Origin: Thermoplasmata archaeon
GTDB taxonomy: Archaea > Thermoplasmatota > Thermoplasmata > Thermoplasmatales > Thermoplasmataceae
Direction of reading: 5' to 3'
DNA: 57,387 bases
NCBI GenBank assembly: GCA_021835025.1
Contig: JAKBQY010000021.1
Coordinates: forward strand, 1-57,387
Shown here: positions 33,925 to 41,211 of the stretch, one piece after another
Position numbering within the stretch: the first letter of the stretch is position 1
How the letters are laid out: each line of letters begins with the position of its first letter
Position numbers and translations under genes: made by a program
Notes under the pieces: model-generated
What the model was told of the DNA's origin: nothing
Databases searched by the model: none
What the model saw: the letters and a program-made list of their open reading frames with translations, nothing else

Positions 33925-33955
33925 TTCTTATAAAAGTTCGAATCTTTAACATATC

Positions 33956-33976
33956 AAAGGGCTCATTTGGCCCGTT
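33956..33976 (+). terminator. hairpin downstream of tRNA-Ser
   Basis: GGGC, TCATTT, GGCCC forms a short hairpin about 35 nt after the tRNA 3' end, followed by GTTTCC. It could aid 3'-end formation; archaeal terminators usually depend on T-runs, which are weak here. Confidence 0.3.
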
Positions 33977-34025
33977 TCCTTATATACACCCCAGCCAGAT
34001 TTGGAAAATTAAAAATTCCCGAATT

Positions 34026-34199
34026 TTAATGAATATATGATCCCATTCCTGTTATGCATTCAATCACAGTCAACATCTCATGATTGATCGCTTCGGATTC
34101 ACCCAGATTTGATGATATCTCAAACTTCGTGGTATCAAACGGTATTCCAAATACATGATAGGTATCCCGAATGTCCATAGGTTTATTTTGCTCAATTAT
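34026..34199 (-). pseudogene. C-terminal gene fragment, unknown
   Basis: On the minus strand a frame of about 57 codons runs to TAA at 34026-34028. It has protein-like composition (PMDIRDTYHVFGIPF, then SNLGESEAINHEML and VIECITGMGSY). An in-frame TGA stands just upstream near 34204, and no beginning is found. An ATG at 34178 could start a 50-residue peptide. It looks like the tail of a broken gene; I do not recognise the family. Confidence 0.4.
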
Positions 34200-34209
34200 G
34201 TCTTGTCAT

Positions 34210-34990
34210 TGATCCCATCATGCTTTTCATGGTATCATTGCATCCTTCAGGAAGTAATTCCTGTCAAGTCTCTTTTTATACTGTTTACTTTCAGAATGCA
34301 TTGCCTGATATCACTATCTGGATTTCTGAATCCTATCCAAATTCCACGACCATGCAAGACAGATATGATAATAGTTCGTGGAAAATTGTCAAAGACCGGC
34401 AAGGACAGTGCCATATTGAATGAAATAAACGGGCAGATGAAACAAAAGAGGATAACAGTTTCCCCTGCTCTGTGAAGGATTCTAAGATCAGCGGCGAGGC
34501 GCAGGACGCTATGACCATAACCGTCGATCCGGGAAAACGTGGGAAGAAGAAACCGCCTGACAAAGGAGGAGATAAGGGAAGCGAAGATCAGGGCAGCTGA
34601 AAACAGACAGATGAGAAGGGATGGAAATCATATTTCATCTATAAGACCATATTAGCGTGGACGGTAGGACGAACTACAAGGACAGGGGACACCCCTGAAC
34701 TGCCTGCAGATGACATGACAGAACCATGGACAGGGCAGTCAGGGTATAGAAGTTCTCCATAGATTGGGTCAAGAGGAACAAACTCATATCCCACAAACGT
34801 GCCATGGTGGAACATCTGTATGCCGTCATAAAGAGGTATTTTATTTCTCGCATGCCCTGTTCATGCTTGCGAGGAGAGTGAGGGTGAAGTTCATGTTTGC
34901 AGCTTTGTCTATATCGTACATATGCTCCAATGCAAAATGACAGGGGCAAATATGCAAATTCAGTGAAAAAAGGGAGGAACATATGCTTGG
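34210..34990 (+). mobile_element. decayed DDE transposase remnant
   Basis: Several stops and frame changes break this stretch, whose GC content is clearly above its neighbours. Conceptual pieces in order are VDPGKRGKKK (near 34510), KIRAAENRQMRRDG, and at 34750-34920 ISHKRAMVEHLYAVIKRYF followed by RVKFMFAAL in the next frame. The last part resembles the C-terminus of IS5/IS4-like DDE transposases in Thermoplasmatales, where a glutamate sits in the VE segment and RVKxMF follows. Ends and target duplications could not be located. Confidence 0.5.
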
Positions 34991-35046
34991 TGCTGAATAA
35001 AAGAATTAATAGAAACCTTTTTAATCAGGAACTAATTCTTCGATTC

Positions 35047-35601
35047 ATGGTAAAGATTGTACCGGGTTCAGTCCTGGTTATAATAGATGTGCAGAAGGGG
35101 TTTGCAGATCCAAGATGGGGTGTTAGGAACAACCCCGATGCTGAAAAGAAGATGAAAAAGGTCCTTGGGGAATTCAGGGAACACGGCCTCAGAGTGATAC
35201 ATGTTAGACATGATTCCAAGAACCCTAATTCACTGCTCCACAGCGGCAAAGAGACCTTCCAGTTCAAGGACGAGGTAAAGCCGCTGGAAGGAGAGATGAT
35301 CATAACAAAGCATGTGAATAGTGCATTCATCGGAACCAACCTTGAGGAGGTCCTGAGAGGAATGGGAAATCCTCCTGTATATTACATGGGCCTTGTTACG
35401 GATCACTGTGTTAGCACCACCGCAAGAATGTCCGGAAACCTCGGTTTCGAGTCATTTGTGATAGAGGATGCCTGTGCAGCCCATGAAGCTAAGGGGATGG
35501 ATGGGGAAAAAATACCGGCGCAGATTGTGCATAATGTTAACCTTGCCTCCATTAACGGAGAATTTGCAACGGTATTAAAATCAGAGGAAATGGAGTTCTA
35601 G
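35047..35601 (+). CDS. isochorismatase-like cysteine hydrolase
   Basis: 184 residues with the complete triad Asp14 (VIIDVQKGF), Lys88 (ITKHVNSAF) and Cys121 (GLVTDHCVSTTARM). Family members hydrolyse amides or vinyl ethers (nicotinamidase, N-carbamoylsarcosine amidase and others). The exact substrate is unknown. The frame is open back to 34897, but that part overlaps the transposase remnant, and the family begins near the ATG at 35047. The gene uses more G/C-ending codons (ctg, gag, gtc) than the rest of the window and sits among IS debris, so recent transfer is likely. Confidence 0.85.
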   Translation: MVKIVPGSVLVIIDVQKGFADPRWGVRNNPDAEKKMKKVLGEFREHGLRVIHVRHDSKNPNSLLHSGKETFQFKDEVKPLEGEMIITKHVNSAFIGTNLEEVLRGMGNPPVYYMGLVTDHCVSTTARMSGNLGFESFVIEDACAAHEAKGMDGEKIPAQIVHNVNLASINGEFATVLKSEEMEF

Positions 35602-36115
35602 CTCCTCACTTTTACCCTTTCTTCTGTATCCAGTGTCATAACGGGACATTGCAACCAGTACGTTTGATATAGTTATAGACGGAACTGTAAAATACCAGCC
35701 CTGGCCGAAGAGATCAAGTTACTCATGGTCAACAATGGATCTGTCCAGATAATATATAATATAGTTGTGTTATGATGGTTCCTATCATATGATTTTTCAT
35801 TAATGTCTATGTGATCAGGTGCGGACGTTTTTTGTGCAAGTCTACTTTTCACCCTATTCATGATGCCATGTGCAATATTCCATGTTATTCCCACTATTAT
35901 GAAAAAAATAACTTATATCCAATGAAAGAGATTTGAAAAGTATTGAGAATCGGGAATGTTTACTGGACCATGGAACTATTACCTTCAACTTTCCATGCAG
36001 AAGGGGATTTCTCGCTTAATTTTGTTAAAACCTTTCATACAATTTTATATTATAACAAATTATATAAATAAAAATATTAAAATAAATTTTTGAATTTTAA
36101 ACGCCTGATTATTTA
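35602..36115. other. gene-free stretch with possible degraded coding pieces
   Basis: 514 bp between the isochorismatase-like gene and the 3' end of the helicase gene. A minus-strand frame at 35673-35894 (73 codons) and a short piece in another frame near 35620-35690 have mixed composition, but I recognise neither. The first 300 bp have the raised GC of the transposase remnant, so this is probably more of the same decayed insertion; the last 150 bp are ordinary AT-rich spacer. Confidence 0.4.
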
Positions 36116-39100
36116 TCACTCAGCTATCTTTTTACTATCATTTTGGGCTGATAGTCTGTTGATCGTATTTATTATGTTTCTTATTATGCTTTCACGATTT
36201 TTTATATAATCAATTGACCAGATTCTGTAAAAATTCCATCCTCTGTCTTCTAATATCTTTTTTCTGAGTCTTTCCCTTTCCACAGGTGTTTTCATTCCTG
36301 CATATATATTTCCATCAGTTTCTATGCCAAGAATATAATGGCTGTCATTGAACGGGTCCATGACGGCAAGCGGTATATTATTTTTCGAATACCCAACATC
36401 CTTGTCAACCTTGAATCCCGCCTTTCTCAAGGTTTTATATACATCATTTATAATATCGTCCGTATTTGAAAATCTGCTCAAAACATCATTTTCGTCATAT
36501 AATGCAAAATGCATATATTTTTTTAAAAGTTCAGGCCCCCTTCCAACGGAGTTTGGGGGGATTTTAATATCCTCCGGCTTCATGGAGGAAACTATTATAA
36601 CCTTTTTTCTTGCCCTCGTAATTGCAACATTTAATCTTTTTTCACCACCAAGTGTGTTTAAGGGTCCAAAATTCATGGTAATTTTACCAGCGTCGTCTTT
36701 TCCATAAGCAATGCTCAAAATGATAACATCCCGTTCATCTCCCTGGACATTCTCAAGATTTTTTATAAATATATCATCACTGTTGATTATTTTTGAGAAT
36801 ACTTCATCATTTTTGGCATAATCATCCATTATATCTTCAATCATTGATCTCTGTGCCTCGCTCAATGTTACCACACCAATTGAATCAGAATCGTTCAATT
36901 CTTCTCTTATTATTTTGACAACTTCATTTGCCTCTGTTAAATTTGCACGATTTTTTCCACGTCCATATTTACCCTCAATATACTTGAAAATTATGCCAGA
37001 ATCCGCCGAATTTTTACAAGCAGAGGGGAACGTCTCAAGAGAGTTCTCGTAAAAATATTTGTTTGAAAATGCAATTAATTTATCATCTATACTTCTGTAA
37101 TGCCATTTCAGGGATATCTTCTCCAGGCCAAGAGCATCGAATTGATCCATTATATTGTCAAGCACAACATAGTTTTCATCATATTTGTTTAAATTTACAT
37201 TTTCAAAAAAACTTGTTGGTGGCAATTGTTGTGTATCTCCGGATATTATGACCTGTTTGGATCTAAATAATGATCCTACGGCCTCAGGTGGTGTAACCTG
37301 TGAAGCCTCATCGAAAATAACAATATCAAACATTAGATTTTTATCAATATAGGAACTTACATTTATGGGGCTCATCATGAGGCACGGTTTTATATCGAAT
37401 AGTATATTTGAAATTTCTGGGAATAATTTTTTTAATGGTTTTTGAAATCTTTTTTTGGCATTTTCGGTTTTTATTATCATAATTTCTTCAGGGTAGTTAT
37501 TTAATGCTTCATTTTTCCTTAAATTTAAATCCGAAATTATATTGTTTCTATAAATTTCCATTCTTTTTTTATCAAATTCAATGAACATTTTAATTAATCG
37601 TTCATGGGATGAAACATTGAAATCCTTTAAAATTTCATCATTTTTAACATAATATTCTTCAAATTTCTGATAAAATTTATGGTAAAATCCCCTTAAAATG
37701 TCATTGTCATGTACTCGTTTTCCAAGGGCATTTTTAATGTTAATACCATTCTTCTCTGTGTTTTTAATTAACTCATATAATTTTAAATATCGTTCCATAT
37801 CAAACGAGAGTAAATTTATTGCCCATTGATTTAAATTTGGAAAATCAAGTTTTTTTAATTTTTCCATAGTTTCGGAATCAAAAAGCACGGAAATATTATT
37901 CATATTTTTAATTATGTCAATATATATATCCTTCACTGGTAGGATCTCATCAATATTTACCTCACCGGACAAAATTTTTCTTATTTTGCCATTAACATTA
38001 TTGTCTGGAAAAAGCGATAAAATTGTTTTGGCAAATACAATCTTATCAATATCCTCTTCCGAAAATTCACTATGCATTTTACTTTTGACGTTCTCTATTT
38101 CCTCTTTTTTATGTTTAACTTTAAGTGCATATTCAATATCTTCAAGTATTTCATTATAATTTTTTCTTGATTTATCATTTGAAAAATCCATTATATGGTT
38201 TACAAGATTTTTATATTCGGAAGATACTCTTTTTATTCTGGATTTATATTGATTTTTTAGCATTTCGAGAATTTTGCTTAAGTCCAGGTTGAGAAGTTTG
38301 TCAGACCTTTTTTTGACAATTATATCATACATATCTTGGTATTCATTTTTTAATTTCATGAGTTTTTGTATAATTTCATAAGAATTATCAATAAAATTTT
38401 TGTCGAAAAATAGATCATTTTTAAGCTTAATTTCATCGTTCATAACAGATAATAAATTGTATACCATTTTAAGATTGTCAATATTATCCAAATTCATGTC
38501 TGTTAATTCCACAATTAAGGGAATTTTATCCATCAAAATTTCTGTATTATTCTGGAATTTTTCAAGATTTTTATAAAATTCCTCCTTCGTGTCCTTAAAT
38601 TTTTCTATATTGAATCCTATTGGAATTTCATAGTAATTTTCAATTAAATCAGTATAATCATTAAACTCCCCCAGCTGGAATTCAATATTATCCAGTTCTT
38701 CATTGGAATATGTTAATATTTCATCTCCTATATCCACATTAATATCTGTACTGTTTTTTATTATTCCATTACAGGAATCATATACTGAGATATTTGCATT
38801 GTCCCTTTTTTCATGAATGCTTGATACATAATCGTTTAAAATACCTGTAAATCTATCTTTAGGCATGATCTCCTTTTTTGCATCCTTTTTAACCTCAACA
38901 GATTTATAGAGAGATTTAATAATATCGGATTTTGATTTATTTCCGTGAAATTCAAGAATAAAATCTGAAAAACCATAGTCATCCAGTCTTTTTTTTACCA
39001 CGTCTATGGCTGCTTTCTTTTCGCTTACAAAAAGCACTTTTTTTCCATTTTTTATGGAATCAACAATAATATTGGCAATGGTCTGGCTTTTCCCTGTTCC

Positions 39101-39925
39101 AGGCGGTCCATTCAGAATAAAACTCGCTCCTTTTTGTGACGCAAGTATGGCATGAAGCTGGCTTGAATCAGCATCCATTATTGTTGTTATGTCATTATAA
39201 TCTATATTATGTGGTATTATGGAATTTATCTTTTTAACCACTTCAAAGTTTCCAGCCAAAGCCTGTGTCAATTCATTATTCTTGATTCTCTCATGATTTT
39301 CCTTTATATCATTGTAAATGATATTATTTGTAAAGGATAAGATACCAAGATAAGCATTATTTTTTACCTCCCATTTTATGTCTTTTATTGTCATTTTAAA
39401 TGTTTTAATTGCATCAACTATGTTGAGGTTTTCATTGAAATTAAAATCATATTTAATTCCATATTCTTCAAGTTTTTCTTTTAGAACGGGATTAAAAAAT
39501 ATATCACCCGCAACAGATTCTATATAGTATTCATCGTAAATTTTCTTTGTCATCTCTACAGGAACAAAAAACAATTGGGTTTCAATTGGTTTTTCCACAT
39601 CTTCCCCCCACCTGAGAATTCCAAAGGAAATGTATAGGGAAACTGATCCATGTTCCTTTATGGAATTTTGAGACCTGTAATATATATTCCTCAATGCATG
39701 AATGACCTTTTCTTTTGTAGATATTATTATCTCATCCCTTTTTCTGGTTTCATCACCATTGAGTTGAAAAGACATTTTTTTATCTTTATTCACAAGGTCA
39801 TCAAAAAGAAAATTCATAGCTGGTGATTTAATTCTTAAAAATCCACTATTATCAAAATACAGTAATTTATTGTTCCTTGACGTATCTATAACATCCTTCT
39901 CCCATTTTGAGATACTTTCTTCCAT
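36116..39925 (-). CDS. DUF4011/SF1 helicase/REase_MTES_1575-like nuclease fusion
   Basis: About 1270 residues, the longest gene here. The N-terminal 150 residues resemble DUF4011 (KWEKDVIDTSRNNKLLYF). Walker A is GPPGTGKSQ (about 277-285) and Walker B/motif II is FDEASQ (about 875). SGDTQQLPP, VQGDERDVI and NVAITRARKK are UPF1-like SF1 motifs III to VI. A long charged, probably coiled-coil insertion separates the two RecA halves (about 330-860). The last 100 residues form a PD-(D/E)XK-like nuclease: Asp1194, then GIETDG (1204-1209) and RIWSIDY. Proteins of this architecture have been proposed as single-gene phage defence. TATA-like TTATATATCTA (39946-39956, minus strand) supports the second ATG (39925) over 39937. 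Confidence 0.88.
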   Translation of the reverse strand: MEESISKWEKDVIDTSRNNKLLYFDNSGFLRIKSPAMNFLFDDLVNKDKKMSFQLNGDETRKRDEIIISTKEKVIHALRNIYYRSQNSIKEHGSVSLYISFGILRWGEDVEKPIETQLFFVPVEMTKKIYDEYYIESVAGDIFFNPVLKEKLEEYGIKYDFNFNENLNIVDAIKTFKMTIKDIKWEVKNNAYLGILSFTNNIIYNDIKENHERIKNNELTQALAGNFEVVKKINSIIPHNIDYNDITTIMDADSSQLHAILASQKGASFILNGPPGTGKSQTIANIIVDSIKNGKKVLFVSEKKAAIDVVKKRLDDYGFSDFILEFHGNKSKSDIIKSLYKSVEVKKDAKKEIMPKDRFTGILNDYVSSIHEKRDNANISVYDSCNGIIKNSTDINVDIGDEILTYSNEELDNIEFQLGEFNDYTDLIENYYEIPIGFNIEKFKDTKEEFYKNLEKFQNNTEILMDKIPLIVELTDMNLDNIDNLKMVYNLLSVMNDEIKLKNDLFFDKNFIDNSYEIIQKLMKLKNEYQDMYDIIVKKRSDKLLNLDLSKILEMLKNQYKSRIKRVSSEYKNLVNHIMDFSNDKSRKNYNEILEDIEYALKVKHKKEEIENVKSKMHSEFSEEDIDKIVFAKTILSLFPDNNVNGKIRKILSGEVNIDEILPVKDIYIDIIKNMNNISVLFDSETMEKLKKLDFPNLNQWAINLLSFDMERYLKLYELIKNTEKNGINIKNALGKRVHDNDILRGFYHKFYQKFEEYYVKNDEILKDFNVSSHERLIKMFIEFDKKRMEIYRNNIISDLNLRKNEALNNYPEEIMIIKTENAKKRFQKPLKKLFPEISNILFDIKPCLMMSPINVSSYIDKNLMFDIVIFDEASQVTPPEAVGSLFRSKQVIISGDTQQLPPTSFFENVNLNKYDENYVVLDNIMDQFDALGLEKISLKWHYRSIDDKLIAFSNKYFYENSLETFPSACKNSADSGIIFKYIEGKYGRGKNRANLTEANEVVKIIREELNDSDSIGVVTLSEAQRSMIEDIMDDYAKNDEVFSKIINSDDIFIKNLENVQGDERDVIILSIAYGKDDAGKITMNFGPLNTLGGEKRLNVAITRARKKVIIVSSMKPEDIKIPPNSVGRGPELLKKYMHFALYDENDVLSRFSNTDDIINDVYKTLRKAGFKVDKDVGYSKNNIPLAVMDPFNDSHYILGIETDGNIYAGMKTPVERERLRKKILEDRGWNFYRIWSIDYIKNRESIIRNIINTINRLSAQNDSKKIAE

Positions 39926-39993
39926 ATTTATATTCATTAAATCTGTTATATATCTATATTATCATATATTAAATTTATGATTAAAAAAATATT

Positions 39994-41211
39994 TTATTGA
40001 TAATTTATATCGATATTCGATGTTTCAAGTCCTTTTATGTACCATGTAGCTGCCCCCACAGCGCCAAGAGCCCATAGAAAAACATTTAAGAGTATAAAGT
40101 CATATAAATTAAGGCTACTGGTGAGGTAAACAAGTACTGGATAGACAACCATCGGCCCAAGTCTAACCGTTCCTATAAATGTTCCCCTGTATTTTGTTGG
40201 GAATAATTCGGGCTCAAGTGTAGTTCTAGACGCCCATGCAAATTCACTCATCATCATATTTATAAATAGTAATGGATAAAAAATGAATATATTGTTAAGT
40301 AATGGAACAAATACGAGTATCATTACAGTACTCAAGAGGCCAATAAAATATGAGTATAATGTAAAAAACCGCCTCCCCCTGGAAATCAAGGGGGCAGCAA
40401 TAAATCCTGCGACTGATGCACCAACCAGAGCAACAAATATTATCATATCATCTGTATACGCGCCAGGGAATTCATATGGCCCAATTATGTATGCCATCAA
40501 TCCAAAGGTTGTATACTGTGATATCCCTATTGATAATAAAACAAAAAAACTCAATTTATATGAAGGTTTATTTGATTTCACCCCTTCAGTATCAATATAC
40601 AGTTCGGACTTCTGCATTTCGGATTTTTCTACGTTTCTGTTTTTGAGCCATTTATATGATTCTGGAAGATTTATCCTTGATATTACCATTATAACGATTA
40701 AAATTACCGCAGATACCAATAATAAAACCCTGTCAAAAAACGTGTTGGATACAACCACAAACAGCCCCGCTATAATAGCACTTCCAATATTATCAAAATC
40801 AGCTATTATTGTTAACCATTTTGCTCTCTGTGATACAGGAGAATCCTCTGATATAAGAGACAATGACGGAATTTCCTCTCCACCAACTCCGAATTCCGCC
40901 AACATAAGCCCTATCGCCAGTGAGACAAATGTATAACTCAATGCAATCACGACTATTCCGGCACCATACATTATCATTGTTATAATGAATATTTTTTTCC
41001 GCCCAATAATATCAGATAAGAAACCTATTATAAAATTTCCAAACGGAACAAATATCGGTCCGATAAGAAGCACAAAAACTTTTAGTCCATGCGGTAAAGT
41101 ACCAATCAATGAACCAGCTGCTGCTAATGGTCCAAGTGTAGCAATCATTCCCCAGAAAGTTAACCCTGACGCACTTGAAAGAAGCATAAAATGCTGCTTT
41201 CGGGTTAACAT
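39994..41211 (-). CDS. MFS transporter, predicted thiamine (or precursor) uptake
   Basis: 405 residues, 12 membrane helices, with the MFS loop motif GFLSDIIGRKK between helices 2 and 3 (about residues 62-72). The family resembles the metabolite:H+ symporter group. A TPP riboswitch directly upstream ties its expression to thiamine pyrophosphate. Riboswitch-controlled MFS genes in Thermoplasma were earlier proposed as thiamine transporters, and the same reading fits here. GGTGA lies 6 nt before the ATG, so the mRNA is not leaderless. Confidence 0.85.
   Translation of the reverse strand: MLTRKQHFMLLSSASGLTFWGMIATLGPLAAAGSLIGTLPHGLKVFVLLIGPIFVPFGNFIIGFLSDIIGRKKIFIITMIMYGAGIVVIALSYTFVSLAIGLMLAEFGVGGEEIPSLSLISEDSPVSQRAKWLTIIADFDNIGSAIIAGLFVVVSNTFFDRVLLLVSAVILIVIMVISRINLPESYKWLKNRNVEKSEMQKSELYIDTEGVKSNKPSYKLSFFVLLSIGISQYTTFGLMAYIIGPYEFPGAYTDDMIIFVALVGASVAGFIAAPLISRGRRFFTLYSYFIGLLSTVMILVFVPLLNNIFIFYPLLFINMMMSEFAWASRTTLEPELFPTKYRGTFIGTVRLGPMVVYPVLVYLTSSLNLYDFILLNVFLWALGAVGAATWYIKGLETSNIDINYQ

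What the first reader, a model, noticed from the sequence alone, without database searches (positions are those of the whole stretch)
36116..39925. Single-gene DUF4011 helicase-nuclease, a candidate defence protein
The fusion joins an SF1 helicase, split by a large coiled-coil insertion, to an intact PD-(D/E)XK-like nuclease at the C-terminus. It lies beside IS remnants. Similar bacterial single-protein architectures have been put forward as phage defence; an archaeal acidophile version would be little studied.
Basis: partly seen in the sequence, partly recalled or inferred. Interest (0 to 1): 0.65.

Follow-up and report, generated by a model that had tools for sequence, protein, structure and literature searches.

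The report
Archaeal defence-type helicase with disabled nuclease
A large archaeal protein of a known candidate anti-virus family (a DNA/RNA motor joined to a cutting domain) turns out to be a stably inherited gene of the Ferroplasma–Picrophilus branch whose cutting domain has lost a key catalytic residue in every member yet is still conserved, so it probably grips rather than cuts nucleic acid.

Summary
The gene is real: 36116–39937(−), 1273 aa, DUF4011 – SF1 helicase with a ~500-aa helical insertion – C-terminal MTES_1575 (Vsr-like PD-(D/E)XK) domain. It matches PADLOC's candidate defence family PDC-S37 along its whole length (906 bits) and is a shorter relative of Hhe and ProA. (1) The nuclease is not intact. 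E1206 and D1208 remain, and dN/dS of the domain is 0.03–0.13, so it is constrained, not decaying. (2) It is not an IS-borne island gene. It is present in 12/12 near-complete genomes of three genera (window's genus, Ferroplasma, a Picrophilus-like genus) that form one clade, and absent from 23 near-complete relatives elsewhere in the family; its tree matches GyrB's, and it sits near the same MFS transporter gene in seven of eight genomes read. Best reading: a vertically inherited, probably non-cutting derivative of a helicase–nuclease defence family. Antiviral function is untested. Interest is moderate.

The parts
36116..39937 (-). Whole gene, 1273 aa, PDC-S37-type DUF4011–SF1 helicase–Vsr-like domain protein
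   Evidence: ORF; families; single copy in the genome
39470..39889 (-). DUF4011 domain (residues 17–156)
   Evidence: PF13195 67 bits, cut-off 22.2; coordinates also
38903..39187 (-). Helicase domain 1A, first part (residues 251–345), Walker A GPPGTGKS at 277–284
37418..38902 (-). ~495-aa helical insertion (residues 346–840), fast-evolving, K/I/N/E/D-rich
36548..37417 (-). Helicase remainder with DEASQ, GDTQQLPP, HYRS, motifs V/VI (residues 841–1130)
   Evidence: AAA_11/AAA_12; motif alignment; UPF1/SMUBP2-like in PDB sequence search
36161..36448 (-). MTES_1575 Vsr-like PD-(D/E)XK domain (residues 1164–1259), PD Asp replaced
   Evidence: PF18741 85 bits, cut-off 38.2; AF2 pLDDT 81 and Foldseek to endonuclease-like 3hrl and Vsr-like 3r3p
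36371..36373 (-). Codon of residue 1189: Pro at the conserved catalytic Asp position
   Evidence: P/A in 13/13 clade members, D in 37/38 others
36314..36322 (-). Codons of E1206-T-D1208, retained acidic pair of strand beta-3
   Evidence: D1208 invariant
39994..41211 (-). MFS transporter, conserved upstream neighbour in the window genus (2 of 3 genomes) and Ferroplasma
33925..36115 (.). Variable interval between the gene and tRNA-Ser(CGA): isochorismatase-like gene 35050–35601 and a lone repeat; a MvaI/BcnI-type R-M pair sits here in the sister genome

Best explanation
It is a vertically inherited, clade-fixed member of the PDC-S37/Hhe/ProA superfamily of DUF4011 helicase-nucleases, and most likely works without cutting. 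Shown: an intact SF1 (UPF1-like) ATPase/helicase core; a C-terminal Vsr-like fold whose PD-motif Asp was replaced, most simply once, on the stem of the Ferroplasma + window genus + Picrophilus-like clade, and never restored; strong purifying selection on that domain since; descent that follows the species tree. Inferred: the protein loads on exposed or abnormal nucleic acid (foreign replication intermediates, ends, R-loops), moves along it with ATP, and uses the Vsr-like domain as a grip or end-binding module instead of a blade, stripping or remodelling the target, in the way the Vsr-like RAP domain of FASTKD4 binds RNA without cleaving. Whether its targets are viruses or the cell's own damaged DNA/RNA is open; I lean slightly to anti-element surveillance because the closest named relatives are defence proteins.
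For: Family: PDC-S37 906 bits, ProA 899, Hhe 593/442 bits; same profile for clade relatives. Helicase motifs invariant. Residue 1189: P in 7 and A in 6 of 13 in the clade, D in 37/38 outside, D also in nearly all remote viral-contig relatives; of 127 columns conserved >=85% outside, only 10 differ in the clade and this is the most drastic. Domain dN/dS 0.03-0.13, whole protein 0.04-0.11. The clade's stem is among the longest internal branches of the tree (~1.0 change per column), followed by slow evolution, which fits a change of role. Gene tree agrees with GyrB tree; carriers are one clade, support 100/98. Fixed: window genus 3/3, Ferroplasma 8/8, g19 1/1 near-complete genomes. Fold: endonuclease-like 3hrl, Vsr-like 3r3p and mitoribosomal chains are the top Foldseek hits. 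FASTKD4: Vsr-like, binds RNA without cleavage (PMC11879112).
Against: Loss of one metal ligand is not proof of inactivity: E1206, D1208 and E1220/E1222 remain, and PD-(D/E)XK active sites are known to migrate (own knowledge). Foldseek E-values are weak (best 0.012). No expression, phenotype or virus data. All clade sequences probably share one ancestral event, so 13/13 is one observation, not thirteen.
Confidence: 0.55

Rival explanations
1. Active single-protein anti-phage helicase–nuclease: the helicase finds viral DNA and the C-terminal nuclease cuts it, with the metal site rebuilt from other acids (E1206, D1208, E1220 or D1194).
For: Full-length PDC-S37 match and homology to anti-phage Hhe/ProA; retained E1206/D1208; domain under selection.
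Against: PD Asp replaced by Pro/Ala in the whole clade. D1194 is Asn in the Picrophilus-like genus and variable elsewhere. Vertical descent with mainly housekeeping neighbours; only 2 of 7 genomes examined (8 loci) carry R-M genes within ~8 kb.
Confidence: 0.18
2. Housekeeping nucleic-acid maintenance factor (UPF1/SMUBP2/DNA2-like), not defence at all: the DUF4011 family has cellular branches, and this is one, acting in replication, R-loop or RNA turnover of these acidophiles.
For: Clade-wide fixation and gene/species tree concordance. Another family of the class (f6) carries DUF4011 proteins in 43/45 near-complete genomes, mostly a ~1245-aa form. In P. aeruginosa a large DUF4011 gene is a core gene flanking defence hotspot cDHS1, present in every isolate (PMC10250203). 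Best solved relatives by sequence are UPF1 and SMUBP2.
Against: Absent from 23 near-complete genomes of other genera of the same family, so not needed by the order. Closest named relatives are anti-phage. The f6 form keeps its Asp, so core status there need not mean the same role here.
Confidence: 0.25
3. A degenerating relic of a defence gene, kept by drift.
For: Loss of a catalytic residue; missing C-terminal tail (matches only 1–1348 of the 1550-position profile); low G+C (27–30%).
Against: No stops or frameshifts in 11 full-length orthologues across three genera; dN/dS 0.04–0.11; Walker and motif VI invariant. The tail-less form also occurs in Asp-bearing relatives in f7.
Confidence: 0.02

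Closest known systems
PDC-S37 (PADLOC phage defence candidate, single gene)
   Same: Aligned end to end over profile 1–1348 of 1550, 906 bits; same order DUF4011–helicase–insert–helicase–MTES_1575.
   Different: C-terminal ~200 profile positions missing; PD Asp of the nuclease replaced. PDC-S37 is itself only a predicted defence gene.
Hhe (DUF4011 anti-phage protein, NF042953) and ProA (NF058533)
   Same: Homologous helicase–REase core (593 and 899 bits; Klebsiella Hhe aligned).
   Different: Both profiles are 1800–1900 positions with extra regions; scores far below their curated cut-offs (2000, 1500); the Klebsiella Hhe keeps the Asp.
Mokosh MkoA/MkoC helicases
   Same: Related SF1 helicase core (107 and 100 bits).
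   Different: Similarity limited to the helicase; no Mokosh partner found among the neighbours scanned.
UPF1 / SMUBP2 (IGHMBP2) SF1B helicases
   Same: Best solved relatives by sequence over the helicase motifs (8e-17).
   Different: No DUF4011, no Vsr-like domain, different insertion.
FASTKD4 RAP domain (Vsr-like, non-cutting RNA binder)
   Same: Vsr-like fold reported to bind nucleic acid without cleavage (PMC11879112); analogy of fold and fate.
   Different: Eukaryotic mitochondrial; keeps the Asp but was reported catalytically inactive; no helicase. Analogy, not membership.
Hachiman HamAB
   Same: Works-like comparison: a helicase senses aberrant DNA and controls a nuclease effector (abstract of PMC12278908).
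   Different: Two proteins, other families; active nuclease.

Membership tests
PDC-S37 (PADLOC) | Full-length match to the PADLOC profile PDLC05009 | tested here: met
   906 bits, protein 1–1269 against profile 1–1348 of 1550; Ferroplasma and g19 orthologues 910 and 924 bits
PDC-S37 (PADLOC) | C-terminal profile region 1349–1550 | tested here: not met
   Protein ends after the REase; also absent in Asp-bearing archaeal relatives L062 and L064, so a sub-type trait rather than a defining exclusion
PDC-S37 (PADLOC) | Demonstrated anti-phage activity | not testable with these tools
   Candidate family; no functional paper found
Hhe (NF042953) | Score over curated equivalog cut-off (2000 bits) | tested here: not met
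   592.8 bits
ProA (NF058533) | Score over curated equivalog cut-off (1500 bits) | tested here: not met
   898.9 bits
MTES_1575 REase (PF18741) | Domain score over gathering cut-off | tested here: met
   84.9 bits against 38.2
Active PD-(D/E)XK nuclease of MTES_1575/Vsr type | PD-motif Asp on strand beta-2 | tested here: not met
   Pro1189; P/A in 13/13 clade members, D in 37/38 others
Active PD-(D/E)XK nuclease of MTES_1575/Vsr type | Acidic pair on strand beta-3 (E-x-D-G) | tested here: met
   E1206 and D1208 retained
Active PD-(D/E)XK nuclease of MTES_1575/Vsr type | Cleavage activity | not testable with these tools
   Needs purified protein
SF1 helicase (UPF1-like) | Walker A, Walker B/DEAS, QLPP, motif VI | tested here: met
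Defence-island gene | Patchy distribution and defence neighbours | tested here: not met
   Clade-fixed; neighbours mainly housekeeping; R-M only in L018 and L019 among 7 genomes, 8 loci

The most novel reading that the evidence does not exclude
A mobile defence helicase-nuclease was taken in once by the ancestor of Ferroplasma, the Picrophilus-like genus and the window's genus, lost its blade, and became a fixed, non-cutting nucleic-acid surveillance factor: a prokaryotic counterpart to the non-cleaving Vsr-like RAP domains of eukaryotes.
Probability: 0.4. Interest if true: 0.55.

Novelty: new variant of a known kind. Interest (0 to 1): 0.4.

Why it matters
Automated defence annotation with the PDC-S37 profile would label every Ferroplasma genome as carrying a candidate helicase–nuclease defence gene. 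The evidence here says the gene is lineage-core and probably not a nuclease, so such labels need an active-site and distribution check. It also points to a cultured host (Ferroplasma acidiphilum; the length of genome G009, 1,826,943 bp, equals the published size of strain Y, PMC5473848) in which to test what a DUF4011 helicase does without cutting, and makes the role of DUF4011 and of the large helicase insertion testable apart from cleavage.

Tried and rejected
Asp1194 as the catalytic residue: rejected, variable column. Universal housekeeping in Thermoplasmatales: rejected, absent in 16 of 19 sampled genera of the family. Recent IS-borne arrival: rejected, orthologue near the same MFS gene in Ferroplasma and window genus. 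Pseudogene: rejected by dN/dS. Functional partner gene: no adjacent gene is kept in all three genera; g19 has a CobN/Mg-chelatase operon and DHODH beside it. Fold search with the N-terminal 860 residues gave nothing usable; the model is too poor. Literature on ProA, PDC-S37 or DUF4011 mechanism: none found in the open-access library. The genome-contig scan returned only the sister MAG. The phage collection gave one long match, an unannotated 11-kb record.

Full report
Observation. The gene is a single open frame on the − strand, 36116–39937, 1273 aa, single-copy in its genome. Pfam gives DUF4011 (17–156), a split SF1 helicase (AAA_11/AAA_12) and a C-terminal MTES_1575 REase (1164–1259), all above curated cut-offs. 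All helicase motifs are intact. Between the helicase halves lies a ~495-aa insertion, K/I/N/E/D-rich, predicted almost wholly helical but with low confidence; relatives have an insertion at the same place and it is the family's least conserved part.

Family. PADLOC's candidate profile PDC-S37 matches end to end with 906 bits; Hhe scores 442. NCBIfam gives ProA 899 bits (cut-off 1500) and Hhe 593 (cut-off 2000). It is therefore a PDC-S37-type protein and a relative, not a member, of the ProA and Hhe families. It lacks the last ~200 profile positions. Relatives of about 27–35% identity sit on haloarchaeal, cyanobacterial and proteobacterial plasmids and on some contigs of a viral collection.

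The nuclease is not intact. The alignment holds 51 sequences that cover this region. Outside the window's family the PD-motif Asp ('IDLAV') is Asp in 37 of 38, including haloarchaeal, cyanobacterial, Bacteroides and Klebsiella (Hhe) proteins; inside it is Pro (7) or Ala (6) in all 13. Remote relatives on viral contigs nearly all carry Asp, L149 being an exception. Only 10 of 127 columns conserved at ≥85% outside differ in this clade (two clade fragments lacking the C-terminus were counted on the outside for N-terminal columns; this does not touch residue 1189). The residue is 1189. E1206 and D1208 are kept. AlphaFold2 gives a fair model (pLDDT 81, pTM 0.69), with 1189 on one strand and 1206 on the next. 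Foldseek's first and third hits are the endonuclease-like 3hrl and the Vsr-like homing endonuclease 3r3p (probability 1.0 and 0.96, weak E-values), with mitoribosomal chains from Tetrahymena and Toxoplasma between and after them; I take these, from my own knowledge, to be RAP-domain proteins. FASTKD4's RAP domain is Vsr-like and reported to bind RNA without cleaving (PMC11879112). One replaced ligand makes loss of cleavage likely, not certain.

The domain is still in use. dN/dS between near relatives is 0.03–0.13 for the REase region and 0.04–0.11 for the whole protein. Its identity between genera is as high as that of DUF4011 or higher.

Distribution and descent. In the family, the gene occurs in three genera only: window genus 3/3, Ferroplasma 8/8 near-complete (9/10 in all), and a Picrophilus-like genus 1/1 near-complete (2/2 in all); no other genus of the family has a DUF4011 hit. 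Ferroplasma is identified by G009's contig length of 1,826,943 bp, the published genome size of F. acidiphilum Y (PMC5473848); the name Picrophilus for g19 is my inference from genome size and phylogeny. In a GyrB tree the carriers form one clade (100/98), and the DUF4011 tree shows the same branching within it, on a long stem. So: one gain (or losses elsewhere), one change of the active site, then vertical inheritance. The species tree rests on one marker, the gene tree on a quick search, and G035's row joins two fragments from separate contigs.

Neighbourhood. In the window genus and Ferroplasma the gene lies next to or near the same MFS gene in seven of the eight genomes where that side was read; G035 is the exception. 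Around it are POR, CbiG/CobQ-like, PALP and GyrB genes. In eight loci (seven Ferroplasma and G035) its last codons and stop lie in 20 bp overlapping, antisense, the 3' end of tRNA-Ser(GGA), the kind of place where integrating elements land; in the window and its sister that tRNA is elsewhere. The interval next to it is variable: a MvaI/BcnI-type restriction enzyme and methyltransferase in the sister genome, an isochorismatase-like gene and a lone repeat in the window. PADLOC scanning of 90 neighbours found R-M genes in two of seven genomes (eight loci) and only isolated weak hits otherwise; no random-region control was run, so neither enrichment nor its absence is claimed. A similar arrangement is published for P. 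aeruginosa, where a core DUF4011 gene bounds defence hotspot cDHS1 (PMC10250203).

Wider point. The family f6 of the same class carries DUF4011 in 43/45 near-complete genomes, mostly a ~1245-aa Asp-bearing form; that these are gut-type methanogens is my inference. Some branches of this 'defence candidate' family are thus lineage-core genes, which weakens inference of defence from the profile alone.

Mechanism. Shown: intact helicase motifs; altered but constrained Vsr-like domain; vertical fixation. Inferred: ATP-driven loading and translocation on abnormal or foreign nucleic acid with a binding, not cutting, C-terminal module. Defence versus maintenance is undecided; I put about 0.55 on the non-cutting derivative, 0.25 on plain housekeeping, 0.18 on an active nuclease with a rebuilt site.

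Noticed in passing
L019, L020, L021, L022, L023, L025, L082, L083: 3' end of the DUF4011 gene: The gene's last codons and stop (…SAGREI*) are encoded by 20 bp overlapping, antisense, the 3' end of tRNA-Ser(GGA) in all eight loci checked; suggests acquisition at a tRNA attachment site. In the window's lineage the tRNA is elsewhere.
   Followed up: partly
L018:11758-13734 (sister genome, interval matching window 33925-36115): MvaI/BcnI-type restriction enzyme and methyltransferase inserted between the DUF4011 gene and tRNA-Ser(CGA); a possible small turnover site, compare P. aeruginosa cDHS1 bounded by a DUF4011 core gene.
   Followed up: partly
window 35998-36030: ~30-bp element (AGAAGGGGATTTCTCGCTYAATTTTGTTAA) with 13 other copies in the genome, many preceded by a CCCC/CCCT-rich stretch that could form a small hairpin; likely an IS200/IS605-type end, one copy lies by an OrfB_IS605 gene (L102).
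   Followed up: partly
family f6 of the same class (e.g. L071, L073, L075, L088, L095): A ~1245-aa Asp-bearing DUF4011 helicase–nuclease is near-universal (DUF4011 in 43/45 near-complete genomes), i.e. core in that family, while Hhe-like ~1900–2000-aa forms are patchy there.
   Followed up: partly
L068:4696-14146: Two different PDC-S37-like genes in tandem (1503 and 1621 aa).
   Followed up: no
L111 and L112 (haloarchaeal plasmids): DUF4011 gene close to a UvrD-helicase gene plus a PD-(D/E)XK nuclease gene (AddAB-like pair) on two different haloarchaeal plasmids.
   Followed up: no
window 35050-35601: Isochorismatase-family gene in a stretch of higher G+C (about 42% against 27–35% around it), no second copy of this DNA in the genome; looks foreign.
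   Followed up: no
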